From contig WKLE02002531.1 of assembly GCA_014885115.2 (NCBI GenBank), positions 1 to 22,110 on the forward strand: DNA of 22,110 nt, in the 5' to 3' direction. The DNA comes from Asterionellopsis glacialis (Eukaryota > Bacillariophyta > Plagiogrammaphyceae > Rhaphoneidales > Asterionellopsidaceae). The translations under genes and the position numbers were made by a program. Position 1 is the stretch's first letter; each line of letters opens with the position of its first letter. Positions 2,834 through 21,873 of the stretch are shown piece by piece. The notes under the pieces are model-generated. The model had not been told where the DNA came from and ran no database searches. It saw only the letters and a list, made by a program, of their open reading frames with translations.

Positions 2834-4798
2834 CTAAATAATGGATTCCATGAATTTGGAAGATTTTTGAATATCCGATACAATATCTTCATTCGTATTG
2901 GATCCCTTATCTTTATAGGCGACTACAGTGGGGATACTAAATTCACGAAGTGCCTCAGTAACAGACATGACACCCAATGCAGATGATCGGCGTCCTGAAA
3001 ATGGTAAGCTATCAGGTGATCGTCCACATTGTGAATTGATATTAATCTTTCCAAAGATGGATGAAAATTGATCCACCAACGAGGCAGCTACCGCAATATC
3101 ATCGTCACTATTGGATGTAAAAATAGAACATTGTTGACCATATTCACTCTCTCGACCGTATTGTACAATTTCATCCATGGTTGAATCATCGTAGGGGACA
3201 ATGGGTACAATAGGTCCAAACTGCTCTTCCTTGTATAGTTTCATATCAGGTGTAACCGGATATAATACAGCAGGAACCATAAGTGTAGACGCACTCCCTC
3301 CAATGATAGATCCACCCTTGTCATTCATAATTTGTGCCCCCTTGGATACGGCATCGTCAATTAATTGTTTCATATACGTGACGCGTTTATGATTTGGAAG
3401 TGGTGTTATTTGAGAATATGCGGTTGTTGTCTTTGTAGTTCTAGTAGCAGTAACATCATTCTTGTCTTGTGTTGTTGTCGTCGTTGTCTTCTTTTGCCAA
3501 GGCAACCCAATCAATAATGACTCGACACGCTCCACTAATTTAGTAGTAAAGTCCTGTGCATGATTCTTGGGGACAAAGAGAAGTTTTAAGGCTGTGCATC
3601 TTTGTCCGTTGTAGGATAAGGATCCTAAAACAGCTTCGTCCAAGGCAGAATCCAACAATGCTTCATTTTTGTCTTGGAACAAATTCGGTAAGAATATACC
3701 CATATTCTTGGCTTCTAATTGCAAAAATAATTTTAATCGATGCGGGTGTGGATGTTGCTGGATTAGATTATCTGCTGCGGCAGATCCACCAATAAAGGCT
3801 AATCCATCAATTGACCCTTCTGCCATGAGTGGTGGCATCGTAGCTCGTCCACCTCCCGATACAAATTGAACAGTCCCCGTGGGCAACGCTTTCGCAAAGG
3901 CTTCCATGGTTAATAAATGCGCTAAACCACCTACCGTAGGGATTTTCATAATAACAATATTCCCCATGAGTAGTGCAGGAATTAAAGTGGCATAGGTTTC
4001 ATTCAAGGGATAATTATAAGGTCCTAAACACATAATAATCCCAACAGCGGCACGACGAACAAATGCCTTGGTCGATCCAATACTTTGCCATCCGGAAGAG
4101 AAGGGTGATGATGATGATGATGCACTATTATTTTCGGATTCTTCCAGCACAGTAATGACATTCTTTGCAAACTCAATGGTACGATCAAACTCAGATTCTG
4201 CATCTTTTTTGTTTTTACCAATTTCCCACATTAGTATATCGACAATGTCCTGTCGTGATTTTTGTAATTCCATTAAAAATTGTTGTACACGGTGTATACG
4301 TTCCTTCATGGACATTTGAGGCCATACTCCCATCCCTCCATTCCATGCTTCTTTGGCATTTTCCATAACTTGCATCGTATCTTCATGACTATACTGAGGC
4401 ATAGTACCAATCACTTGTGGACTCAAGTTCGGAGTGATCGTTGTATCGTCGTCCTCACAGTCCTCTTCCTCCTCCTCATCTCTACTAATCTTTGGGGGAT
4501 GAACTTCGCAACATCCATAAACGTCAGCTAAAGGAACATCATCAATATTCGTTATGACTTGACCGTTTTTCAATATTTTAGCATGAACAAAGGGTGGTTC
4601 CATCTTGTCATGGCTATCGTCGTCATCGTCATTTTTATTATGAATTAACAAGGATCGACTCGAGGCACACACTTTAGATCGTGTTGTCGATGACTCATTC
4701 TTCTCTAAATTACTTTTGGTCGATGTCGATGCATTGGCACCCAAACCAAGGATTAGAAGTATCTGCAAGGCAGACAATGTCGTCTTTGAAAATTTCAT
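2834..4798 (-). CDS. GAPN-like aldehyde dehydrogenase with N-terminal signal peptide
   Basis: An aldehyde dehydrogenase superfamily protein, closest by eye to non-phosphorylating NADP-dependent glyceraldehyde-3-phosphate dehydrogenase (GAPN, ALDH11 type), which oxidises an aldehyde to the acid with NAD(P). The motifs are 'GPYNYPLNETYATLIPALL' (substrate/cofactor loop, catalytic Asn near residue 261), 'LQLEAKNMG' (residues 359-367) and 'SYNGQRCTALK' with nucleophile Cys401. 'EEQFGPIVPIVPYDD' follows towards the C-terminus. I chose the ATG at 4796-4798 because it starts a clean signal peptide ('MKFSKTTLSALQILLILGLG'). An upstream in-frame ATG at 4831 would bury it. This gives 654 residues, longer than the usual ~480-500. 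The extra length is a Ser/Thr/Lys-rich leader, an acidic Glu/Asp tract (about residues 107-120) and a Thr-rich insert after Cys401. The cleavage region 'GANASTSTKS' has no Phe, so classic plastid-stroma import is unlikely. ER, secretion or the periplastidal compartment are options. The family is firm; substrate and location are inferred. Confidence 0.88.
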   Translation of the reverse strand: MKFSKTTLSALQILLILGLGANASTSTKSNLEKNESSTTRSKVCASSRSLLIHNKNDDDDDSHDKMEPPFVHAKILKNGQVITNIDDVPLADVYGCCEVHPPKISRDEEEEEDCEDDDTTITPNLSPQVIGTMPQYSHEDTMQVMENAKEAWNGGMGVWPQMSMKERIHRVQQFLMELQKSRQDIVDILMWEIGKNKKDAESEFDRTIEFAKNVITVLEESENNSASSSSSPFSSGWQSIGSTKAFVRRAAVGIIMCLGPYNYPLNETYATLIPALLMGNIVIMKIPTVGGLAHLLTMEAFAKALPTGTVQFVSGGGRATMPPLMAEGSIDGLAFIGGSAAADNLIQQHPHPHRLKLFLQLEAKNMGIFLPNLFQDKNEALLDSALDEAVLGSLSYNGQRCTALKLLFVPKNHAQDFTTKLVERVESLLIGLPWQKKTTTTTTQDKNDVTATRTTKTTTAYSQITPLPNHKRVTYMKQLIDDAVSKGAQIMNDKGGSIIGGSASTLMVPAVLYPVTPDMKLYKEEQFGPIVPIVPYDDSTMDEIVQYGRESEYGQQCSIFTSNSDDDIAVAASLVDQFSSIFGKININSQCGRSPDSLPFSGRRSSALGVMSVTEALREFSIPTVVAYKDKGSNTNEDIVSDIQKSSKFMESII

Positions 4799-5032
4799 AT
4801 TGCAATCCTTAAAAAGTAAGTGCTGACACAAACAAACACTGTCTCAAAGTCTCTAAACTTGATTGATACACAATATACACTCTATCGGAAAGACAAAAGA
4901 GAACGACAGGGGATAAGAAGAAAAATGACGCAAGGTACGAGAATCTAGCAGGAAGAACAGCGCAAGCGAGATGGAGAAAAGAAAAGAAGAAAAAAATGAC
5001 TTTCGCCAGATTTCCAACAAGAAAAGAAGAAG

Positions 5033-5492: not shown

Positions 5493-6431
5493 ATGAAAAA
5501 GCACAAGATGAGTAATGATACTCGTAGCAACAAAAGATGCCACCAACGAAGAGAAGCTAACGGACCAGGATGGCAAGAGCATTTTGTAGATGTAAAACGT
5601 GCATCGAATTCGGCTTCCGTGGGTTTGGCAGTGTCCCAATCTCTGTCCTACGTAACTATATCACACTTTGCATCCATAGAGGAACGTCAAGCTTTGATAC
5701 AATCCGCAAGTGATTGCAACAACTGTAACAACGACAGCCAAGAGGAGATTCATAGTAGTAGCAATAGCAATCATATCTTGTTTGCGTCAGCTACAAATAC
5801 GAATTGCAATCGTTTTAGTGTGGAAACATTACTAAACGATGGGGCCAAACGCGCAAGCAATGTACTACTGAATCGCCTTTTGGGTTTCCTTGATGGTAGT
5901 CTAGGAGGCGAAGGAGAAGACTCTTTATCCGGTGAAAATAATAATAATAAGAGTAATGGTAATCCCGCAAAGTTTTTTCCACAGGGTGGTGGGCATAGAA
6001 TGTCCCTCCTTGCGGAGGAGGTTTTTGGATCAAGTTCTGATCTAAGGAGTATGAAAGTAACTTGGTACGATGAGCCTGATGAAAGTGGTATCCTCCATCC
6101 AGAACCAAAAGTTAATTTGTATTCTGAAGGAGGATATTTCAGCCAACATAGTGATGGAATGGAGCTTACCCTGTTGGTTGTTCTAACCGATGAATTCGAA
6201 GGCGGCGGGACTGCCTTTTACAAAGATTCGGATCCACCCCCCCAAGACGACGACGGTGACGACGACATCAAGAACGAGTCGAAAGAAATATCCAAACCTG
6301 TATCCCCGGAAAGGATTGCCAAGCCACCGGCAGGTACGGCTATGATTTGGGGTGGTACGCTTCAACATATGGCTTTGCCCGTTACAAAGGGTCGTCGTGC
6401 GGTGTACGTTGGATCATTTGATCTGAATTGA
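5493..6431 (+). CDS. 2-oxoglutarate/Fe(II) dioxygenase, prolyl-4-hydroxylase type
   Basis: 312 residues, one exon. The C-terminal half is a 2OG-Fe(II) double-stranded beta-helix. 'VNLYSEGGYFSQHSDGME' gives iron ligands His219 and Asp221, 'LQHMALPVTKGRRAVYVGSF' gives the distal ligand His292, and Arg301 or Arg302 is placed to bind 2-oxoglutarate. Such enzymes hydroxylate prolyl or other side chains using O2, 2OG and ascorbate. The N-terminal 130 residues are not recognised and contain Asn/Ser-rich stretches. An acidic Asp-rich loop lies between the ligand motifs (about residues 247-262). There is no signal peptide or membrane segment, so a cytosolic or nuclear site is more likely than the ER lumen. 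A second Met at codon 6 is an alternative start. The gene ends 41 bp from the minus-strand remnant at 6473, tail to tail. The substrate is unknown. Confidence 0.82.
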   Translation: MKKHKMSNDTRSNKRCHQRREANGPGWQEHFVDVKRASNSASVGLAVSQSLSYVTISHFASIEERQALIQSASDCNNCNNDSQEEIHSSSNSNHILFASATNTNCNRFSVETLLNDGAKRASNVLLNRLLGFLDGSLGGEGEDSLSGENNNNKSNGNPAKFFPQGGGHRMSLLAEEVFGSSSDLRSMKVTWYDEPDESGILHPEPKVNLYSEGGYFSQHSDGMELTLLVVLTDEFEGGGTAFYKDSDPPPQDDDGDDDIKNESKEISKPVSPERIAKPPAGTAMIWGGTLQHMALPVTKGRRAVYVGSFDLN

Positions 6432-9489: not shown

Positions 9490-10284
9490 ATGAAACTCCG
9501 AGTTTCTTTTACAACTGCCTTAGGGTGGTTGTTGGCTGCTCCTATGCTCACGATGGCTTTGCCATCTACCTCAGGTGCTTCTCACGCTGATGAAATGCAG
9601 CGTCTTTTGACCGAGCAAAAGATGAAGGAAGTGGAAGAGACAGCTTCCAGAAATCTTCCAATTCGTGAACATTTGGAAATCCAGCGCATCATGATTAAAG
9701 AAGAGAAGAAGAAGGAAAATTTAAGAGATGATTTCAACTCTGAACCTTTTCCAACTTTTCATGGTGATGAATTTTATCTTGAAGATCATGATTACCACCT
9801 GGAAAGATCCCTTGTAGTAAAACCTTTGAAAACTTCGCATATTGGTGACTTTATGCCACTCTCCTGTAATGATGGCAATATGGTTTGCGATGAAAAGTTA
9901 GTTTCTAGCATTATCCAAGCAAATCAAGTTCTCGAAATTCCCTGCGGCGAGTGCTATATCTTTGACCAAGAAGGAGAAATAGAACTAGCTGGAATTAACA
10001 TCAAGGGAAAGCTCCACTTTCCGCCAAACCATAAAGTTACCATCAAGACGCCGTACGTCATTGTTCAGGGCGAGCTTGAGATTACTGATACCAATGTGAT
10101 TGGTGGCGAAGATACTGATTCTGTGAATTTTATCCTAACCGGAGAAGGTGAACACAGCTTCGTGGGCGCTCATAACAATGCCGGTGTCTGCGGAGGATCA
10201 CCTTGCGCCATTGGCAGCAAAGCATTTATTGTTGCGGGAGGAAAACTCAATATTCAAGGAATGAAAGACGAATCCTGTCCTACA
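9490..10284 (+). other. Signal peptide and G8-like domain of the giant protein
   Basis: Residues 1 to about 24 form a signal peptide: 'MKLRV', a hydrophobic run, then 'TMALPSTSG' at the cleavage region. Residues 25-110 are a charged helical pro-region. From about 130, 'QANQVLEIPCGECYIFD', 'GINIKGKLHFPPNHKVTIKT' and 'YVIVQGELEITDT' follow the G8 pattern: the 'v.ip.g..v.ld' opening, 'l.i.G.L.f', then 'ilv.GG.l.ig'. 'IGSKAFIVAGGKLNIQG' is the second part, as in CEMIP and TMEM2. G8 domains are known from extracellular proteins such as CEMIP, TMEM2 and fibrocystin-like proteins. The assignment is by pattern and was not searched. Confidence 0.72.
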
Positions 10285-13200
10285 TGGACAAAGCTCATTG
10301 GTCAGGCACAAGGAGATCGGGCCTATCTTGAGGATGGAGAGTTTGCCCGCAAGACTAAGCTACCTGATTATTGTTCTGACATCATTCTAGAATCAACCTT
10401 TGAGAACGACTTAGAGCATTGGGACGGAAATGATGGAGGCAAGGCCACCTGGGATGATGTTGAGGGTGCCCTTGTGGTTAGTGAACGTGGGGCAACTTGG
10501 CAGGGTCCACGTTTTGACATGACCCATCTTCAAGAACCTCACATGTCGTGTTTATTACCAAATATTGAGTACTTAGTAAATGCTCGAGTTAAATTGACAA
10601 AAGAAGACAACTCTGGGAATGGCACCCCAACTGAGTGTGCTTCCGATTGGACCAAATGTGTTCAGATTATTCATAAAACAGCCTCCCCTCCAGGACAACC
10701 CTACATCCATGATCGGGAGCTTCTTCGACAGTCAACTCGATTAGCTGGGAATTACGGCGAATGGGTGGACCTGATCGGTATTGTCAAGTGGGATCCAGTA
10801 CAACTCAATTCTGCAAATTTGTTCCATCTATTGGAGATCCGAGGGCCCAGTGAAGGCATCGATATTCATCTAGATTCTATAAAGATTTATCTTCCCTCGG
10901 AAACATCTTTTCTCAACCCAACTGACCAATGCTACGAGTTACTGCCAAATGGTGATGCAGAGGCCAATGGAATGCACCCGTATCCGTTCCGTTCTCATAA
11001 TAATGGGAACCCAGTGTACGCCATAAAGGAGGAGAATGGTAACAATTTCTTTCGCCAGAGTCTGAGAGAACATTGGTGGTCGTTCATGTATGCAAACGTA
11101 AACCAGCATTGCTTCAAACAAGCCATCATCTATACCATGTCCATGGATGTACGGATCCACAGTGAAACTCCCGTGGCTTACTCTGCTTCAATATATGGTA
11201 AATACCAAAAAGGTACTGATCAAATCGAAAACTATGAAACCGATAGGATATCCTGTCCTAAACAAACTATTCATGATGGTTGGGTCACATGCAAAGGAGA
11301 CTTTACAATAAAGCCTGAAATGGAAGCAGCAACTGAACCTGGTAGATGGAGACTTTTTTTGAACGATTTCACTAGTCTTGTTGATATTGATTACGACAAC
11401 CTCAAAATAACTTTCAAGTCTGGTCCCGTAGAAGGCATCAAACTTGATGACTCTATTGCGTCCTGTTGGGGTGTAGGTGCTGACGTTCATATTACAAGCT
11501 CGACATTGACTGACGACCAAGCGCAATCAAGCACAATCTCAGAAATAATAAAGAAGGGTGATGGTACAGTTTCCTTACAGCTTCAAGATCCAGTCTCTAC
11601 CATTATCGGTTCTGACGAGTCTGAAGACTTTGCTGTAGAAGTTGCTCTTATATCGCGAAACATTAAGATTCAGGGAGATGGCGGTTATCTTCAAGTACTT
11701 CATACACCTAAGACTGCGCAAATATTGAAGGGTGTTGAGCTAAAAAACATGGGTGAACTTAGCGTTCCTGACCGATATGTGAGTACTACTGTGCATTCCT
11801 CGACTCATATGGAATCTTTTTGATCAGTGCTAAACTTTTGAAATATTTTCCCCTCTACTCTATAATTTGAGAGCAGCCTATTCAGTTCCTGTATTCTGGG
11901 GATGTTAATGGCACCGATGTCTCAAGAAACTCGATTCGCGATTCAAACCAGCGTTGCCTCGTGCTTGATAATACATCGAATGCTCTCGTCTCTGAGAACG
12001 TAGCCTACAACTCTACTGGGAATTGCTTTTACGTCGGATACGAATCTGAGAATAATTTATTCAAGAATAATCTTGCATCGTCTATAACTAACAGAATGAA
12101 CTGGAATAACAGGATCCTGGACATGGATGACCATTACCTTTCTGCATTCTACACTGTCTGGCCACCAAACCATTGGATTGGAAACGTGGCTGCCGGAGGC
12201 AAAGGGCAAGGATTCCGTTTTGTATCCCCATGGCAAGTCCGTGGAGAAGACAACAATGTCATCAGCGTTCCCAATGCAAGGACAAAGCAGTTTGGGATAT
12301 TTAGTGATAATGTTGCACATTCAAATATGAACGACGGTTTTCAGGCTGGCGACGTCTACGGCGGGCTTTTAAAAATCGAAAACTTCAAATCCTACAAGAA
12401 TGGAATGAAGGGTTTGTATGTTTGGTGGTCAAAAAATATCCAGATCACTGGTGGATTTTTTGCGGATAACCAAATAGGAGTTCATTTTCATTATACCGAT
12501 ATGGTTACAGTTGAGGATACTGAATTGTATGGTTTGTCTGATTGGATGAAGGAGAAAACGAAACAGCTTCCAAAAAAACACTGCCCTGGAAACCCCATCA
12601 TTGGTATCAAGCTACCTCCCTTCTTGAGAGATAGAAATGCAAAAGATGGCGCAACATTGAGAAATTTATTTTTCGCCGGCTTCGATAACAGCCCAGATTG
12701 TCCTGGAAGCGTTCCTATCACCTTCGACAAAGCTATGTTGGATAATAAATCTTTCAAACATTTTGTAAGTAATGTACCCGCTAAATTTTGACATAATTCT
12801 TCTCATTGCTTACACCTATCTTTATGTCTCTTTTTCTCTCTACCCCATCAGAACTACGCAACTTCTGTGGAAAGTATCGTGTCGCAGGATTCACGAAATG
12901 TGATCATTGATGCTTGTTCTCTTCAAGAAGTCGGAGTTCTAGATGTTTTGATACATAATGTAGATGGTTCATTGGATCCAGCTGGGCAGTCCACAGTACC
13001 TTCAGCCATTGTGAGTAACACTGGCAATATGACAGCATTTGCTAGCTGTGAAAATTACCCAGATCAATGCATTGCTTATTGTCGTGGTTGTTTGGGCACG
13101 GTAACATACCTAGTTGAGACGGATGGTTCTGAAAATTATGTAGTCGAAGTTAATAGCAACGCGAGTGGTGAGAAAGCTTACTTTTCTGGTTTTGATGATA

Positions 13201-16200
13201 ACGATGGCGATAAAAAAAAAGCCTCTGATGCCGCAGATATGCGCTATTTCACAGTGGTTGTTGCTGCCGGTCAAAAGTACAGCGCATCATTTCTCAGTGG
13301 AGTTGGTGGCCAGATAGTCTGGCCATCGTTCACAAAAGAAGAATGGGGCAAACCTCCTACAGGCTGTGCCTCATATGTTGCCGTTGGAGACATTGATATG
13401 GTTGTACCTTCTAGATCCTGCGAAGACAACTTTATTCGCAATCCTGATTTCGAAACTGAAACATATGATTACTGGAAACATAATAATATATGGAATTCGA
13501 AGGGAGGTGAAGCAATTAAATATATAAAGGAAGCTGGAATAGATGGTTCCGTTGCTTTAAGTACTGACGTGCGAAACAGTCCTTGGCAAGGACTTGGTCA
13601 ATGGCTCGACATGCGCTGTATAAGCGATCACTTGGGAAAATACTATGAATTTAAAGCTAATTTTCGTATGATGAAGAACGGACAAGGCGTATCTTGCGAT
13701 CCAAATGGAAATGAACAGAATGGAGGTTAGTTTATCCACAATTGATGTCTCTCATGTGTACGTTCATGCTTGCATCATGATTACCTGTTTCACTTATTGT
13801 CTCACACTTGGAAATGTTTAACTTCTCAGGTTGCCCAACGATTACTTTTGGTATGTACGGATATAATAATCCAGCAACCAAAGAGGGCGAATGGACACAT
13901 TGGTGGGGAAATCAGGTGAGTGTCTGATCTCGCATTCTGAAACAAAGATTTACTGAACTGCGCTATACGTATCTTAATGAGTTCTAACAGAATTTGCCTT
14001 TACTTGTACTTTCAATCATTTTTTTTTACAGGTGAAATCAGTAGTACCTTATGAAGAAAACAGCTTTGGATTAATTCAAGGGATTTTCAGAGTGTTCCAG
14101 TATCTTTCTTCTGCTAACCGTGTCTTCCTCAAGATAGAAAGGGCAACCCCAGCAGATGCTGAGATAGTTCTTGACAATATTTCAATCACACCATTTGAGC
14201 CTAGTTGTGATAACAATCTTGTGATGAATGGTGATTTTGCTTCTGGTTCATCTGATTTTTGGGACAGATATGGCACTGTGAGACTTAGCATAGTGGACGG
14301 AGTGGATTCGACGAGTGCCCTCAAGTCGTCAAATCGTGGAAATCGAGGCTGGGGCCAGAAGCAAACAATGAAAGCTGATTGCTTTCTCGAGGGAGATCGC
14401 ATCGCCATTCGTGCCATGGTGAAGCATGATATAGGCGACGAGACCTCACAGTGCAATCCATTTTCAACTCGTAAGTGACGGTATACGTGATATTTATTAC
14501 ATCTTCATGTTTCTTGTTTCTTACTACTCACTTATTTTGAACCCACAGATGACGGCCCGGAACGGTGCAGTGATATTATATTGCATTCGAAGCACCCAAG
14601 CCTGGGAGCTTGGTACCATCGGGTAATACCTGGAGTCACAACAACAACTACCAATGATGGTTGGTACGTCGTTTCTGGGGTAGCAACCATTTCTAAGAAG
14701 ACCGAAAATGCGGAGAAATTTGAGCTGTGGTTTGATGGAGCAAGCACTCAATATGACGTTATCAGCGACAATGTGATTGTCCAGAGGCTTCCGCAAAATT
14801 GTGACAACATGGTTCTTAACTCTGACCTTCAAGATGGCACGACGTCTTTCTGGGATACGTTCCATGTTACTGGATCTAAACTCAGTATTAATAGCCCAGG
14901 GGTAGGAGGAACAGGCCATGCACTACGCCAGTACGACCGTACAAATCACTATACTGGGGTTGGGCAAACTCTTGATGCACGCTGCTTGATCGAAGGAGAA
15001 ACATTGGCTATCAGTGCTTCGATGAAACTTGTGAATTCCACGACCGGTCAAGGTGGTGTATGCGATCCCGATAAACAGAACGATTGGTCTAATCCATGCC
15101 CGTCCCTTGAAATTCATGGCTCGGAATGCAGTGTTGGGAGCTTCCAATTGTACAGGAGATTTTTTAACGATGCACCTTTTTTTCAGAATTGGGCTGCAGA
15201 TGACTTTAATCCTTTCTACGCTGAAGTTCAAATCTCTCAGGATCTTGCATCGTGCAAGTATGTGAGATTTAAGATATATGCATTCGGTATGGAATTTGAT
15301 CTTATTCTGGATAATTTTTCTATAGGAATCAAAGGAACCGACGCCCCTACGCCCGCTGCAACCGAGGCTGTGTCTGAGACTCTAGCCCCAACCCCAGAAG
15401 AAGTCACTTCCGCTCCAACATCCAACCCAACGGTAGCATCGTTGACAACCTGTCCAGGAACTCTAAACACGCCATCTCCGATCACTATTGGAAACGAGCC
15501 TCTTCCAATTATGTTTGTCCGAGCTGAAACTAATAAGCTTTGTACATTGACAAGGACTGCGATCAACGAAAATGGAGAGACTCGTATTGTTCCTTTGGCT
15601 CGTTCATATGAAGAATTCGACTGGGAAACAGCTGCTGGGACTTCTGCATCATCTGTTTTTCTGGGACAAACTTGGAATTGTTACGATGACGGGTGTCAGA
15701 TAACACTGCCACCACTCGAGCAAGGCGAGTCGTACGAGCTTACTTCTTATTCTTACAATATCGCCGAGAAAGATGAGATAGCCCGATTTCTCGAATCCGC
15801 TACATTTGGTGCAACAAGTACCGATATAAACTCCTTCAGCAGCCCCTCGCTTGATTTGGACACTGCAACAACTTCATGGTTGCAAAATCAAATGAATGAA
15901 GCTTCAGTCGGGATTACAAGCCACAGAGAGTACTGGAGAAAGCGAACTAATCCTATGTTCGTCAACCCTCAGTCAACATCAAGACCTAGCCATCCATGTG
16001 ATCTTGGATCCAGGTGGAGACGATTCACTTTTACACAAAAGCACAGTGTTTGGTGGCGGGAACATATTGTAACGTTCGATGGGTCCGGACCTTACGTTAT
16101 GAATTTAGACGGTAATCCAGTGACTATAGTCCAAGAGGTAGATTTTACTGAGGAGGGTCACACATTTGACTCAAGTCTAACATATATAACTTGCGGTCGA

Positions 16201-19200
16201 CCTCAAGAGACAGTCGGCGGCAATCTGTATTTGAGACACGAAGATGGAACTTGCATCACTACTCAAAATCCAGAAGTAAATTTCACTGAGTTTGAAAGTA
16301 CTCCTAAGTTTGTGCTAGATCTCCCAAATGATGTAAACTTTTTCAGGGAAATCGACGATCACTTGGCTCCTCAAGAAATGTTTATTCTTTTGGCAGGATC
16401 AAATAGCCCAGTTTGCGGTACCATTCCAGACATCACTGAAGAAGGTGATCCTCCTGTTTTTGGTCGCCTAGGTGATACTTGGTTTATTTTTGATCCAAGA
16501 ATTGTTCTCGACGATAACACGGTTAGCTCTCCAATACCTGATGGTGGTGGATCGACAGAACTTGCGACAGGTGGGGACACACTGTGTTCTAATGCCGCGA
16601 GATCATTCCTCAACGAAGAAAGTTGCTTTTTGTCAACCTCTTCTAGCGCCTGCGGTTCCATTCCTGCGCCAGAAACATTAATTCCACTAGACGAAGAAAA
16701 TCTGTTGAATTTCCTGAACCTAACAGGAAGGTATGTCTATGCTGTTGACAAACTCGCAATCGAAGATTCTTCTGGTAACAAGATCGAGCCCGTTTGCACA
16801 CCAGGACTTCGATCCCGCTGGAAATTGAAAACGGATTCAGCTTGTACTCCCACATCCTTAGGTAGCGAAACAAATGCCACTCTGACAGATCTTCTTGTCG
16901 CACAGAGTGCTGATGAAAATCCTCAATTTCGTGATACCCACTTTCCTGCAGCAGGAGTATGTGATCCTGAAGACACAGGTCACAATATTGAGATTTTAGT
17001 CGATGGCCAATGCTGGGAACGTGTCCATCCAGATCTCATGTCTGTTTACGATATGACTTATTGGACATATAACGACACACATATGGGTAACATGCATGCT
17101 GCATGGAACAACCGCCCTCATCCGATTAAAAAATGGGCTGACATCGAAGGAACAGCAATTCTGTCGTACCCTAGTTCACACCCATTGCTTGGAGCAGACT
17201 ATGATCACCCTATTACACGGTGGACTAATAATCACCAAAGGTTTCCATATGTTGGTCGATTTGGTGATTCCGTAAGATTCCGTGATTTACCAAACGAGAT
17301 ACGGCTAGACCAAGTTGCAGACTGGTATCATGCAACCGGCTCTATCACTGGTAGTGGAGTTGTAGTTTGTGGAAGCCCAGGTGAGGTTTCAAATAATGAG
17401 ACTCTCGGTACAATCTTTGACTTCGCAACTGGCAGGGATACATCATGGAACATTGGCAAAAATCGAGAAGCAGTATGGACATCAGTTGCGCTGAGTGCTC
17501 CAGATCAATTGAGACAGAGAGTTGCCTTTGCGTTTTCGCAACTGCTTGTTGTTGTGAGGCTTGCTATCTCTTCGTCAGTTCAGGATTCGGAGGTAAGGAC
17601 ATGAAGGCAATCTTTTGACGCTTATCGCATTTATCCTTTCAAATTTTTCTCACAGTTCCACTCTCTATCGTTTCCAGTCCTTCCTGACTTACTACGATAT
17701 TTTTGTAAGAAACGCCTTTGGCAATTACCGTGATATCTTGCGCGAAATTAGTTATAGCCCCCTAATGGCCGAGAATCTGTCATACCTTCAATCAAGGAGT
17801 GCTGCATACATGTATGATGTCTTTGGACAAATAAGCTTCGCTGACGAGAATTTTGCACGTGAAATAATGTAAGTCTCGTGTGACAAAAGCTCCAGTGCTG
17901 CATCAATACTATATAATTTATCTTCCGTATTTTTCATACGCTTTCGAAATTTCTTTTCTACACACAAACATAGGCAACTTTTTTCTACAGGGCTTGTACA
18001 CTTGAATATTGATGGCACACCAAAGCTTGATGAGAATGGACAAACTATCCTAGTGTATACTAACGAAGAAATCATGTCTTTTGCACGGTCTTGGACTGGA
18101 TTTGACTACCAGAGGAAACGTGCCAACGTTGAGGAGGCTTCTTGGTCTGGCAATCATATTGACCCTATGAGAATCGAAGCACAGTGGCGCGATCGATTTC
18201 CGAAGAGTGATCTATACGATGGTTACATTGGAGACGGATATCCATTGTGTGTTGATCTTCCTAAGAAAATGTTTCTCACGAGTGGTGCTCGATATAGGCT
18301 TCTAGGTAGCTCATTCTTACCGGAGTTGATGACCGACGTAAGTTTACGAGGCTGTCTTTCTTGTAATCTTCAGCATATCAATGTCTCTTCCTCTCGCTCT
18401 CATCGTCATTTTCCTTTGTTGTACCCAATACAGCCTTCTGAATTCTCAACAGATACATCTATTGTTCATTTTGAGTTAGACCAGGGCTCAAATCTCAAAA
18501 GTAAGCTTTGCAATGACATCGCAGGTAACTGCAAATTCAATAGTAATGTGGTACTTGATGATAATCTCATATGCGTCGGACAGGAGTGTGATGTCGATAC
18601 AGTCCGAGTCGTTAAGGTGGAAAATATGTTTTATGAATATGTTTCACCTCCCTGTGTAGAGCAATTGTTCTACAAGAATGCGGTGAAATTGCTTGAACGG
18701 CATAGAGGAATGCAGGCGACATGTGCTAATCCACTATTACCCGCTGCATCGGAAGCCTGCTGTTCTTCTGGATCTTCAACAGCGATTAGAAATTCAAGGT
18801 ACGACCGTGAACGAATGACTTATGCCACAGCGACAAAGCGATGTGAAGACATAGACAAGTTAACCTGCGACTATAGCCATGTCGAGAACAATGCTTGGTA
18901 CAAGGCTGGTTGGCACTGGGCGAAGGATGACTGCTTACTTCTTGTTAAGATCAATACAGAGGGATATGCTGCAGTTGTTTACGAACCAGAGCAGTATACT
19001 ACAAAAGTAAAACACATTGATGACGAAAGTCGTAACTTCTTCAAAGTGTACTGGGAAGGAAACTTATACCCGACCGCTTTGAATGCTTGTGGAGGCTGCA
19101 AGACGCTTTCTAGTGGAGAATGTATGTGTGAAACAACCGTCAGCGAGAATCGGGTTTTCGGTGGCATGCCCAGAAGCATAGACGATGCCTTATCGAAACT

Positions 19201-21873
19201 ATATATTGGAGCTCTTGATCCATCGACTTATGATCCTGATATCACCCCAACGGTCGATGCAGTAACTGGTATTGCGGCTTACAAACAAGGAGAATTGTTT
19301 GATACCAACACTGTTTTTGTTTTCACAGATTCCAAGGGTCGCTATCATTCGTTGAAAAATGCAAGGGAAACAGTGCATTTGTTAGATACAAACCGATCTT
19401 CAACTGGTTTCTCATTCCGAAATGCTCCAACCTTTATGAGTCTTGTGCCCTCAGAAGCATCGGCACGCGATGCACAGTATGAAACGGATGCCGTGCTCGA
19501 CCATTACTTTTATCATGACAATACTGCGCCATTCCTTTGCATTCGTATGATACAGGTAAGAGATATTCTTGTCATATTTGGAACATCTTAAAATGTTACG
19601 AAACTAATTATATTGTGCATTTTGCCTTAGCGTCTGGTATCTTCTAATCCGAGTCCTCGATACATTGAGACATGTGCCAAGGCCTTCCAAACTGGGCTCT
19701 ATAAAAATTTTGGATCTGGCAAATATGGCGACCTAGCGGCAATGGTAGCAGCAATTTTACTTGATAGGGAGGCTAGAAGTGTAATTCTTGACAGGGATCC
19801 TTCTCAAGGTTCTTTGCGTGAGGCCCTTTTGAAGGTTATTGGGGTCATGCGTAGCATGGAGTTTCAATCTTCATCTAGTTCACCCGTGGTCAGGTTTCAT
19901 GATGTTATCGCCAACCGTATCGGGCAAATGGCGCATGACTTTCCCACGGTATTCTCTTTCTTCCTTCCTGAATTCCGGCCTAAAGGACGAGTTGCCGACG
20001 CATCGCTCGTCGGTCCAGAGGTATGTGCACTTTGTCCTTGGCTTGTCAACTTCTCCCCCCTTTATTATCACTATTCTCAATACTAATTTCATTCTTGTTT
20101 TCCGTTGAAGGCGTTAATTATCGATATGCCGAAGACGGTAAATCTTCTTAATGGACTGTTTTCTCTGGTCAAATATGGCCTTTCTAATTGCTATGGTGGC
20201 TTTGGAGTCTCCTCATGGAGCCGGTATTGGAATTGCAATGAGGGTAACTATGTCGACAGCGGTCAACTTACTTTTTTGCCCCTAAGCTCAGACGCTTCCT
20301 CGGTAGTCGACGAACTTGCTACTCTCTTAACAGCTGGCAGGCTGAGTGCAGAAAATCGGCGCATCATTGCGGATGCTTACGAAAGGGCGAGAAACGAAAG
20401 CAATGGAGAGGCATCCCTCCGGATTGCTCAACAATTGATACTTACCTCTCCAGAATTCCACAGTACTAATCCTGTCCAACAGAGTGGTATACAACGCGAG
20501 GCAATTGATCAACCGCAAAAACTTGGCATAAATGACTACAAAGCTGTTGTGTATCTAATGTTCTCCGGTGGCTGCGACTCATACAATATGATAGTCCCAC
20601 ACACGTGCACAGGAAAAGATATGTACAAAGAGTATCTTGCAGTTCGGGAGCAGGTGGCTATTGCAAAACAGGATCTTTTGGAAATTCAAACGAATCGCCA
20701 AACGTGTGGAACTTTTGGCATACATCCCTCACTTCCCTCTATTCAACAGTTATATAATGAGTCAGATTTACTATTCTTTGCAAATACGGGAGTTCTTACG
20801 GCGCCCTCAACCAAAGAAGATTACTGGCAAAAAACGAAAACCCAATTATTTGCTCACAATCACATGCAACGCGAGGCAAAAGCTGTAGATCCGTTTGACG
20901 TCGCGTTTGGAACAGGGGTAATCGGGCGAATGTCTGACATACTTTCAGTTCGGGGAAACAACGTAGGATCTTTTTCTATTGACCATTCGTCCGTTGCTTT
21001 AATTGGCCAGCCAGGTGTGGGCTCTGAAACCTTTATTCTGGGCCAAAATGGTATTACAGAGTTCAACCCCCAACCCTCTATGCCAAACATGACAGATCAG
21101 ATTTCCGCTTTGAACACGGCTACTACGGCTGATTCGGGATTCTTTGCTGAGACGTGGTCAGAAGAATTGATGAAGTCTCTGGTACACAACGATTTACTAC
21201 ACACGACTCTTTCTGGTATCGAAACAAGTGTACCGTTTCCAGATACTCAACTTGGAAAGAAGCTAGAAATTGTTGCCAAGATGATCGATACTAGAGATCA
21301 GAGAGGAGTAGATATGGACATGTTTTACGTTGAAATTGGAGGGTTTGACACACATGCTGATCTAAATGAAAACTTGCAAAATAGATTCGAGGAAGTGAAT
21401 GATGCTATTTACGCATTTGCATCAGAGCTGAAGAATATGAGTGTATGGGATCATGTAACTACAGTCCAGACATCCGATTTTGCTCGGACATTGGCCCCTA
21501 ATAGCGGGGATGGTACAGATCACGCGTGGGGCGGAAAGTGAGTGAGCTAATGTTTTATTGCTTTGCCGTCGCATTTTAGAAACTGCCCCTAACAAAAATT
21601 TTCTCTCTTCTGTTGTTTCGTAGCTACATGATGTTTGGAGGCTCCGTGAGTGGAGGTGAAATCTATGGTTCATATCCTGATGATTTAACAGATGATGGCC
21701 CTCTTGGTTTGGGCCGCGGCCGCCTCATACCTGAGACTCCATGGGATTCAGTTTTTGAAGCTGTTGCTAAGTGGGTTGGCCTTAGTGATGAAGTGGATCT
21801 GAACAAAGTTTGCCCAAATCGCAACAGCTTTGGTGATGACGTGCGTTTCAATAATTTGAGTCTTTTTGGCTAA
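9490..21873 (+). CDS. Giant secreted G8 / beta-helix / CBM / DUF1800 / DUF1501 fusion protein, 12 exons
   Basis: Proposed exons: 9490-11778, 11877-12764, 12852-13725, 13830-13915, 14032-14470, 14549-17592, 17678-17868, 17974-18337, 18434-19555, 19631-20020, 20111-21537, 21624-21873. The total of 11364 nt is an exact multiple of three, 3787 residues plus stop. All introns are GT-AG, and conserved motifs cross several joints: 'GELSVPDRY|PIQFLYSGDV', 'REIM|QLFSTGLVHL', 'IRMIQ|RLVSSNPSPRY', 'HAWGGN|YMMFGG'. Domains in order: signal peptide (about 1-24); G8-like (115-265); two CBM_4_9-like jelly rolls (294-650); CEMIP/TMEM2/PKHD1L1-like beta-helix (655-1110); a Cys-containing region (1110-1245); three more jelly rolls (1248-1790); Pro/Thr linker (1790-1826); DUF1800 (1935-3350) with two insertions; DUF1501 (3372-3787). 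No membrane segment is seen after the signal peptide, so secretion or cell-wall location is likely. Proposed role, as inference: binding and modifying extracellular polysaccharide. A split into two or more genes cannot be excluded without transcripts, but no internal promoter or start is evident. Confidence 0.82.
10371..15335 (+). repeat. Five diverged CBM_4_9-like jelly-roll modules in the giant protein
   Basis: Five modules share an entry motif [DN]-x-x-[LIV]-x-[NS]-x-[DT]-x-[EQA], mostly followed within ten residues by an aromatic residue: 'DIILESTFENDLEHWDGN' (from 10378), 'CYELLPNGDAEANGMHPYPF' (from 10929), 'NFIRNPDFETETYDYW' (from about 13428), 'NLVMNGDFASGSSDFW' (from about 14215), 'NMVLNSDLQDGTTSFWDTF' (from about 14806). 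Most close with an 'x-[LI]-D-[NS]-[IFV]-x-[IV]' strand such as 'IVLDNISITPF' and 'LILDNFSIGI'. A conserved Cys opens copies 2-5. This is the pattern of CBM_4_9/galactose-binding-like sandwiches, which bind glycans. Copies 1-2 lie between the G8 domain and the beta-helix; copies 3-5 lie after it. Introns 3-5 fall inside copies 3 and 4. The range includes the beta-helix and introns. Confidence 0.65.
11452..13410 (+). other. CEMIP/TMEM2/PKHD1L1-like right-handed beta-helix
   Basis: Characteristic blocks occur in the order known for the CEMIP/TMEM2/fibrocystin-like group: 'VALISRNIKIQGDGGYLQVL', 'GVELKNMGELSVPDRYPIQF', 'SIRDSNQRCLVLDNTSNALV', 'ENVAYNSTGNCFYVGYESEN', 'NHWIGNVAAGGKGQGFRF', 'FGIFSDNVAHSNMNDGFQ' and 'ITGGFFADNQIGVHFHY'. 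CEMIP and TMEM2 are linked to hyaluronan breakdown in vertebrates; here the substrate is unknown. Introns 1 and 2 lie inside. After about 13010 a Cys-containing stretch ('SCENYPDQCIAYCRGC') leads to a small beta-rich region before the third jelly roll. Confidence 0.78.
15341..15450 (+). other. Pro/Thr/Ser linker of the giant protein
   Basis: The stretch 'DAPTPAATEAVSETLAPTPE' followed by 'SAPTSNPTVAS' is a typical flexible, probably O-glycosylated spacer in diatom secreted proteins. It separates the glycan-binding and beta-helix half (residues 1-1790) from the DUF1800/DUF1501 half. Confidence 0.75.
15775..20470 (+). other. DUF1800 domain, split by two large insertions
   Basis: The start 'EIARFLESATFGATSTDINSF' matches the opening of DUF1800 ('a.rfl.qatFGpt..di'). 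After about 520 residues of insertion the core resumes with 'SAPDQLRQRVAFAFSQLLVV', 'YYDIFVRNAFGNYRDILREI', 'ADENFAREIM|QLFSTGL' and 'FARSWTGFDYQ'. A second insertion of about 350 residues (18434-19480) holds Cys-rich 'ACGGCKTLSSGECMC'. Family sequence returns with 'TDAVLDHYFYHDNTAPFL', 'RLVSSNPSPRY' and 'GDLAAMVAAILLDREAR'. It ends at 'LTSPEFHSTNP'. DUF1800 has no established activity. Introns 6-10 fall here. Confidence 0.85.
18338..18433 (+). other. Intron 8: 96 bp, frame-neutral and stop-free
   Basis: The donor GTAAGT follows 'FLPELMTD' and the acceptor AATACAG precedes 'PSEFSTDTS'. The 96 bases are exactly 32 codons with no stop in the reading frame, so an unspliced message would still encode the full protein with a 32-residue Ser/His/Leu-rich insert. 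The splice signals are strong, so I favour an intron. Confidence 0.7.
20538..21873 (+). other. DUF1501 domain (sulfatase/phosphatase-superfamily-like)
   Basis: 'YKAVVYLMFSGGCDSYNMIV' matches the DUF1501 opening ('vflrGG.Dg.n.vvp'). 'CGTFGIHPSLPSIQQLYN' matches 'falhP.l..l..ly'. 'YVEIGGFDTHADLNENLQNR' matches 'GGwDtH..q...l...l'. 'VQTSDFARTLAPNSGDGTDH' with 'AWGGN|YMMFGG' matches 'T.SEFGRt...N...GtDHGwg'. The Asp/His residues in these blocks are the likely metal-site residues of this alkaline-phosphatase/sulfatase-like family; activity is not proven for the family. It follows DUF1800 after a linker of only about 20 residues within one exon. Bacterial versions often carry their own export signal, which is absent here because the domain is internal. 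Confidence 0.87.

What the first reader, a model, noticed from the sequence alone, without database searches (positions are those of the whole stretch)
9490..21873. A ~3787-residue protein joining an animal-like G8/beta-helix module to DUF1800-DUF1501
The N-terminal half has the block order of CEMIP/TMEM2/fibrocystin-like proteins, the group linked in vertebrates to hyaluronan breakdown. The C-terminal half is a bacterial-type pair whose DUF1501 part resembles the sulfatase/alkaline phosphatase superfamily. With five glycan-binding-like modules and a signal peptide, the simplest hypothesis is a single-chain extracellular machine for binding, cutting and desulfating or dephosphorylating an algal polysaccharide or cell-wall/adhesive glycan. 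I know of no described system with this combination, but I could not search.
Basis: partly seen in the sequence, partly recalled or inferred. Interest (0 to 1): 0.85.

Follow-up and report, generated by a model that had tools for sequence, protein, structure and literature searches.

The report
Giant diatom fusion protein, probably secreted
This diatom gene encodes one very long, probably secreted protein that joins a module of sugar-binding type to two protein domains that bacteria make from two neighbouring genes; several other diatoms keep the same layout, and its task is still unknown.

Summary
Twelve GT-AG exons (9490-21873, +) give one 3787-residue frame with G8, CEMIP beta-helix, CBM_4_9, DUF1800 and DUF1501, each above Pfam's cut-off. 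The halves meet inside one exon (14549-17592).

Against an active sulfatase or phosphatase: the Ser at the likely nucleophile position (27 of 27 bacteria) is Ala here and in 126 of 165 aligned rows. 'Animal-like' is weak: G8 and CEMIP also occur in a bacterium and in stand-alone diatom proteins, and Pfam finds no TMEM2-type lectin insert. Most likely an extracellular glycan-holding, possibly glycan-modifying protein.

The parts
9490..21873 (+). whole gene: 12 exons 9490-11778, 11877-12764, 12852-13725, 13830-13915, 14032-14470, 14549-17592, 17678-17868, 17974-18337, 18434-19555, 19631-20020, 20111-21537, 21624-21873; 3787 aa plus stop
   Evidence: GT-AG at all 11 introns, frame open throughout
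9490..9579 (+). signal-peptide-like N terminus
   Evidence: read by eye; hydropathy peak near residues 5-25
9913..10296 (+). G8 domain
   Evidence: Pfam PF10162, 28.9 bits, cut-off 22.9
10360..10929 (+). CBM_4_9-like module a, behind G8
   Evidence: Pfam PF02018 best stretch 297-345; conserved block
10930..11439 (+). CBM_4_9-like module b
   Evidence: conserved block; Pfam PF02018 at 476-601 of relative P0001
11446..13013 (+). CEMIP/TMEM2-type beta-helix region (over introns)
   Evidence: Pfam PF24606 104.1 bits; PDB 8c6i E 3.4e-8
13416..14199 (+). CBM-like module c (over introns)
   Evidence: cross-matches module e
14200..14793 (+). CBM-like module d (over an intron)
   Evidence: cross-matches module e
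14794..15336 (+). CBM-like module e
   Evidence: matches modules c and d in this protein
15337..15438 (+). Pro/Thr/Ser-rich linker between the halves
   Evidence: sequence
14549..17592 (+). exon 6, uninterrupted from the rear half of module d through the linker into DUF1800: the join of the two halves
15757..20467 (+). DUF1800 in three conserved pieces (15757-15981, 17212-18211, 19388-20467) with two inserts, over introns
   Evidence: Pfam PF08811 167.7 bits, 2 stretches; blocks
20525..21870 (+). DUF1501 domain (over the last intron)
   Evidence: Pfam PF07394 95.6 bits; relative P0190 models as an alkaline-phosphatase-type fold
20852..20857 (+). Ala3477-His3478: inferred nucleophile position (Ser in 27 of 27 bacterial proteins) and the conserved His

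Best explanation
It is one multi-domain diatom protein that probably leaves the cell. Shown here: the single reading frame, the domains, the same layout in other diatoms, and the matching order of the bacterial DUF1800-DUF1501 gene pair. Inferred: an ancestor of these algae took up a bacterial DUF1800-DUF1501 gene pair, the two genes fused into one chain, and one line was further joined to a diatom G8/CBM/beta-helix head. The CBM-type modules and the helix most likely hold a cell-surface or wall polysaccharide and bring it to the DUF1800-DUF1501 body, which belongs to a glycan-processing or glycan-anchoring set. In this copy the Asp/His site of DUF1501 is kept but the usual nucleophile appears lost, so it probably holds or anchors the glycan, or uses other chemistry, rather than acting as a classical sulfatase or phosphatase.
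For: One frame, halves joined in one exon. Complete layout in 15 of 89 relatives, among them transcript-derived P0001, Cyclotella cryptica and Chaetoceros debilis. In the same genome twelve other contigs carry the C-terminal module; one of them (C77) also has G8, helix and CBM matches; seven others have a signal-like start directly before the module, by eye. Helix tree: 17 of 18 fused rows form one group, support 93. 79 of 79 bacterial loci: DUF1800 then a separate DUF1501 on the same strand, gaps 0-63 bases where one search lists both genes. Next gene with F5/8C and/or PA14/GLEYA domains in 24 of 41; PA14/GLEYA on 2 of 5 large verrucomicrobial DUF1800 proteins; further sugar-binding-type modules on many algal chains (Pfam accessions). 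Twin Arg in 27 of 27 bacterial DUF1501. Fold class.
Against: No experiment places the protein or its substrate. The 79 loci are the best of 589, ranked by a query spanning both domains, so they favour loci that hold both. The F5/8C or PA14 neighbour is confined to Bacteroidota by record title: 24 of 24 there, 0 of the 17 others (one has laminin-G); 3 of the 24 score below Pfam's cut-off. The nucleophile assignment rests on secondary structure and conservation, not on a superposition; a profile alignment with phosphodiesterases failed. Strict conservation of the Asp/His residues argues against a mere binding role, and 2 of the 15 full-layout relatives (P0016, P0019) keep Ser. Paralogue C77 has no room for modules a and b (46 bases between the G8 and helix matches), so the layout varies. 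In the C-module tree the headed rows need 8 changes.
Confidence: 0.47

Rival explanations
1. Active single-chain enzyme: the head binds an anionic polysaccharide and DUF1501 removes or transfers sulfate or phosphate groups with metal ions.
For: Fold class; Asp3385, His3478, Asp3642, His3644, Asp3699 and His3700 are kept in 164 or 165 of 165 rows, and 31 of 165 keep Ser.
Against: Ala at the inferred nucleophile here and in 126 of 165 rows; the Asp three residues on, present in 27 of 27 bacteria, is also lost.
Confidence: 0.25
2. Structural or adhesive cell-wall or mucilage protein whose DUF1800-DUF1501 part is only a scaffold.
For: P/T/S-rich linker and many binding-type modules; some relatives have P/S/T-rich, Lys-rich or Cys-rich tails or a hydrophobic C-terminal stretch (by eye).
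Against: The core pieces of DUF1800 and DUF1501 are the most conserved parts of the chain in nearly all of the 15 comparisons, unlike a passive scaffold.
Confidence: 0.17
3. Two neighbouring genes read as one.
For: Each half also occurs without the other in diatoms.
Against: The join lies inside one 3044-base exon; P0001 is one transcript ORF of 3781 aa; 15 of 89 relatives share the layout.
Confidence: 0.03

Closest known systems
Bacterial DUF1800-DUF1501 gene pair (PF08811, PF07394; also beside chitin synthase genes, PMC5122149 passages)
   Same: Same two domains in the same order; in Bacteroidota and some Verrucomicrobiota a lectin-like partner
   Different: Two genes in bacteria, one chain here; nucleophile-position Ser in 27 of 27 bacteria sampled, Ala here; two large inserts in DUF1800
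TMEM2 / CEMIP (PDB 8C6I)
   Same: G8, then inserted modules, then a CEMIP-type beta-helix
   Different: CBM_4_9 modules where TMEM2 has a lectin-like domain; large C-terminal DUF1800-DUF1501 half
Diatom G8-CBM_4_9-CEMIP proteins without DUF1800 (P0091, Phaeodactylum P0108)
   Same: Same kind of head
   Different: No DUF1800 or DUF1501 listed
Nucleotide pyrophosphatase/phosphodiesterase and sulfatase fold (7mw8, 7ptj, 4uop)
   Different: 9-14% identity in the rows shown; nucleophile not evident; ligands not mapped residue by residue

Membership tests
DUF1800 (PF08811) | Pfam score over cut-off | tested here: met
   167.7 vs 26.1 bits
DUF1501 (PF07394) | Pfam score over cut-off | tested here: met
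   95.6 vs 27 bits
Bacterial DUF1800-DUF1501 pair | both domains next to each other in this order | tested here: met
   79 of 79 loci have this order; same order here
Bacterial DUF1800-DUF1501 pair | two separate genes | tested here: not met
   one reading frame
Alkaline phosphatase superfamily | fold | tested here: met
Alkaline phosphatase superfamily | Asp/His metal ligands | tested here: inconclusive
   six Asp/His kept in 164-165 of 165 rows, but not mapped on coordinates as ligands
Alkaline phosphatase superfamily | Ser/Thr/Cys nucleophile | tested here: inconclusive
   Ala at the inferred position; profile alignment failed
CEMIP/TMEM2 | G8 and CEMIP beta-helix | tested here: met
   28.9 and 104.1 bits; 8c6i E 3.4e-8
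CEMIP/TMEM2 | lectin-like (GG) domain inserted behind G8 | tested here: inconclusive
   not among the 8 Pfam families at E <= 1, CBM_4_9 lies there; no structure of the head was made
CEMIP/TMEM2 | hyaluronan binding or depolymerisation | not testable with these tools
   none
CBM family 4/9 | Pfam score over cut-off | tested here: met
   57.4 vs 25.9 bits, 3 stretches; sugar binding not testable

The most novel reading that the evidence does not exclude
Sugar-binding part plus DUF1800 plus DUF1501 is an undescribed machine, shared by bacteria and algae, for modifying or anchoring surface polysaccharides. Diatoms fused it into single chains, multiplied it with varied sugar-binding-type modules, and in most sampled copies, this one included, replaced the Ser-nucleophile chemistry of DUF1501 by another use of the same Asp/His site.
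Probability: 0.17. Interest if true: 0.85.

Novelty: new variant of a known kind. Interest (0 to 1): 0.6.

Why it matters
DUF1800 and DUF1501 are bacterial families without a known function. Large diatom proteins that fuse them to recognisable sugar-binding-type modules, with about a dozen related loci in this genome, give a handle on that function and on how diatoms build or remodel surface polysaccharides. I found no description of the combination: 'DUF1800'+'DUF1501' 2 papers, 'DUF1501'+'diatom' 1, 'G8 domain'+'diatom' 2, unrelated by their listing, 'DUF1800' 4, 'DUF1501' 10, Pfam/InterPro numbers 2, diatom/CEMIP/CBM4 terms 991 of which 20 were listed. The library holds only open-licence papers.

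Tried and rejected

Residue mapping of DUF1501 on phosphodiesterases by profile alignment failed (E 0.43), so the nucleophile stays an inference. It rests on position 634 of P0190, at the start of a helix, being the only residue that is Ser in all 27 bacterial rows between the first Asp and the Asp-x-His; Ser675 is Ser or Thr in 27 of 27 but lies in a strand.

Viral relatives of DUF1501: 12 stretches matched a pattern, none confirmed. CEMIP in bacteria that carry the pair: 1 of 21 genomes searched, a partial match over the cut-off; one of the 22 handles asked for was not held. Rfam on the window: 0 matches. NCBIfam named neither domain; a Tat signal match in L055 was just below its cut-off.

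The tree of DUF1800C plus DUF1501 (79 rows that I chose out of 163 with both parts) did not make headed proteins one group. Its label 'CEMIPfull' also held the fragments P0008 and P0015; 5 of 19 such rows were dropped for coverage. Of 13 rows rechecked, many labelled headless begin inside module e, the linker or DUF1800 and look 5'-truncated; P0124 starts with a signal-like stretch and looks truly headless. In the helix tree 34 of 48 rows passed the coverage filter.

First thought dropped: that C77 repeats the complete layout. One search shows only 46 bases between its G8 and helix matches, so modules a and b are missing there.

Not done: no structure of the N-terminal half (both fold jobs went to DUF1501 and DUF1800), no expression data, no species name for the window's genome, contigs C944, C1320 and C647 not fetched.
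Full report
What is there. The window lies in an unnamed 40.3-Mb genome (1503 contigs). I call it a diatom because the close relatives that bear names are diatoms. Twelve exons from 9490 to 21873 with GT-AG borders give one open frame. My first version had 3784 residues. Residue numbers use the shorter version; add 3 after residue 763 for the numbers used here.

Domains. On the spliced protein Pfam gives G8, CBM_4_9 (3 stretches), CEMIP_beta-hel, DUF1800 (2 stretches) and DUF1501, each over its cut-off. Order: signal-like N terminus, G8, two CBM-like modules, beta-helix, three CBM-like modules, P/T/S-rich linker, DUF1800 with two inserts, DUF1501. The rear half of module d, module e, the linker and the front of DUF1800 lie in one exon of 3044 bases, so the halves cannot be separate genes without cutting an open exon.

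Conservation of the layout. A search with the C-terminal half found 89 proteins, of which 15 carry all parts from G8 to DUF1501 in the same order. They include P0001 (MMETSP/EukProt, ORF marked complete, 3781 aa; 80% identical over the C-terminal half, 57-75% over the modules of the head), Cyclotella cryptica gene models (P0003, P0005) and Chaetoceros debilis (P0016, taxid 122233). In the window's own genome tblastn finds the C-terminal module on 12 of the 13 other contig stretches I had in hand. One, C77, also matches G8, helix and CBM module c, but has only 46 bases between G8 and helix, so it lacks modules a and b. Upstream of C1259, C1209, C4, C1449, C406, C748 and C833 a signal-like start sits directly before the module, by eye. 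Contigs C944, C1320 and C647 also showed matches and were not fetched. A search with residues of the C-terminal core found 650 proteins, 120 listed; names among them include Ditylum, Helicotheca, Odontella, Pseudictyota, Nitzschia, Fragilaria, Seminavis, Epithemia and a Psemu1 gene (Pseudo-nitzschia, recalled). A Symbiodinium-type gene name (symbB) appears, so the fusion is not confined to diatoms.

How the parts came together. The head without DUF1800 exists in diatoms: 23 hits of 620-1852 aa, a length range set by the search, some of them fragments. In a tree of the helix region 17 of 18 fused rows form one group (support 93) and P0019 lies apart: one or two joining events. In a tree of DUF1800C plus DUF1501, headed rows are clustered (0 of 500 shuffles as low) but need 8 changes; many of the 'headless' rows rechecked look truncated.

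Bacterial counterpart. A scan of bacterial and archaeal genomes kept 79 loci, the best of 589 confirmed, all with bacterial titles. In 79 of 79 a DUF1800 gene (cut by the contig end in some) is followed by a separate DUF1501 gene on the same strand; none is fused. Where one search lists both genes the gap is 0-63 bases, not counting the 204 bases between the two pairs of L077. The set is biased towards loci that hold both. Of 72 loci with a downstream gene, 41 have one on the same strand within 120 bases and at least 150 aa. I scanned all 41: 24 have F5/8 type C and/or PA14/GLEYA domains at E <= 0.001 (21 over Pfam's cut-off), many with a type IX secretion tail; one has laminin-G; 16 have something else or nothing. 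All 24 are Bacteroidota by record title; none of the 17 others shows these domains. Of five verrucomicrobial DUF1800 proteins, scanned because they are large, two carry PA14/GLEYA and PKD domains and a third a CBM35 match below cut-off. Many algal chains list further sugar-binding-type accessions such as CBM_35, F5/8C and PA14, at positions I did not determine. So a lectin-like part keeps company with DUF1800-DUF1501 as a third gene in Bacteroidota, as a front part of DUF1800 in some Verrucomicrobiota, and within the fused chain in algae, but I did not see it in the sampled Proteobacteria and Acidobacteria. PMC5122149 (passages) reports the pair beside bacterial chitin synthase genes and suggests a functional link; PMC4452313 (passage) says DUF1501 lacks characterisation; PMC4960237 (passage) says Akkermansia muciniphila lacks the DUF1501 module; PMC7563939 (passages) lists DUF1800 among enriched domains of up-regulated genes in a coccolithophore.

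The head. 8c6i (TMEM2) is the only convincing PDB sequence match, E 3.4e-8, over the helix. [quoted passage not shown] Here CBM_4_9 modules take that place. A hyaluronidase function cannot be transferred, and TMEM2 catalysis is itself disputed (listing; PMC10474455 one passage). G8 and CEMIP are not animal-only: the control bacterium Deinobacterium chartae has both, and also DUF1800 and DUF1501; I did not look at how they are arranged there.

Verdict. A real, single, conserved diatom protein type with an architecture for which I found no description. Most likely an extracellular glycan-holding and possibly glycan-modifying protein. The 'bind, cut and desulfate' machine is not shown, and its desulfating part is weakened by the lost Ser.

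Noticed in passing
538-2109, - strand: ORF of 523 aa with a CCHC zinc-knuckle and a DTG protease-like motif near its end: looks like the gag-protease part of an LTR retroelement at the window edge; no Pfam match; motifs read by eye.
   Followed up: partly
2834-4831, - strand: Aldehyde dehydrogenase ORF, 665 aa, Pfam 261 bits.
   Followed up: no
5493-6431, + strand: 2OG-Fe(II) oxygenase-like ORF, 26.6 bits, just under the cut-off of 27.
   Followed up: no
relatives P0022, P0025, P0033, P0026: Hydrophobic stretch behind DUF1501, followed in P0022, P0025 and P0033 by a charged tail: possibly membrane-anchored forms of the fused pair (by eye).
   Followed up: no
relatives P0006, P0007, P0009, P0013, P0016, P0018: Long tails behind DUF1501: Lys/Arg-Pro-Ser repeats in P0006 and P0007, P/S/T-rich stretches with Cys-rich units in the others (by eye); the Lys-rich ones recall silica-associated proteins (recalled).
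   Followed up: no
L089 3444-4421: Exosortase gene shortly behind a bacterial DUF1800-DUF1501 pair.
   Followed up: no
G000, contigs: Twelve other contigs carry the DUF1800-DUF1501 module in a 40-Mb genome, at least seven with a signal-like start and no head; C554 and C528 may be near copies.
   Followed up: partly
control genome Deinobacterium chartae: One bacterium rings for G8, CEMIP, DUF1800 and DUF1501 alike; whether they are neighbours there was not examined.
   Followed up: no
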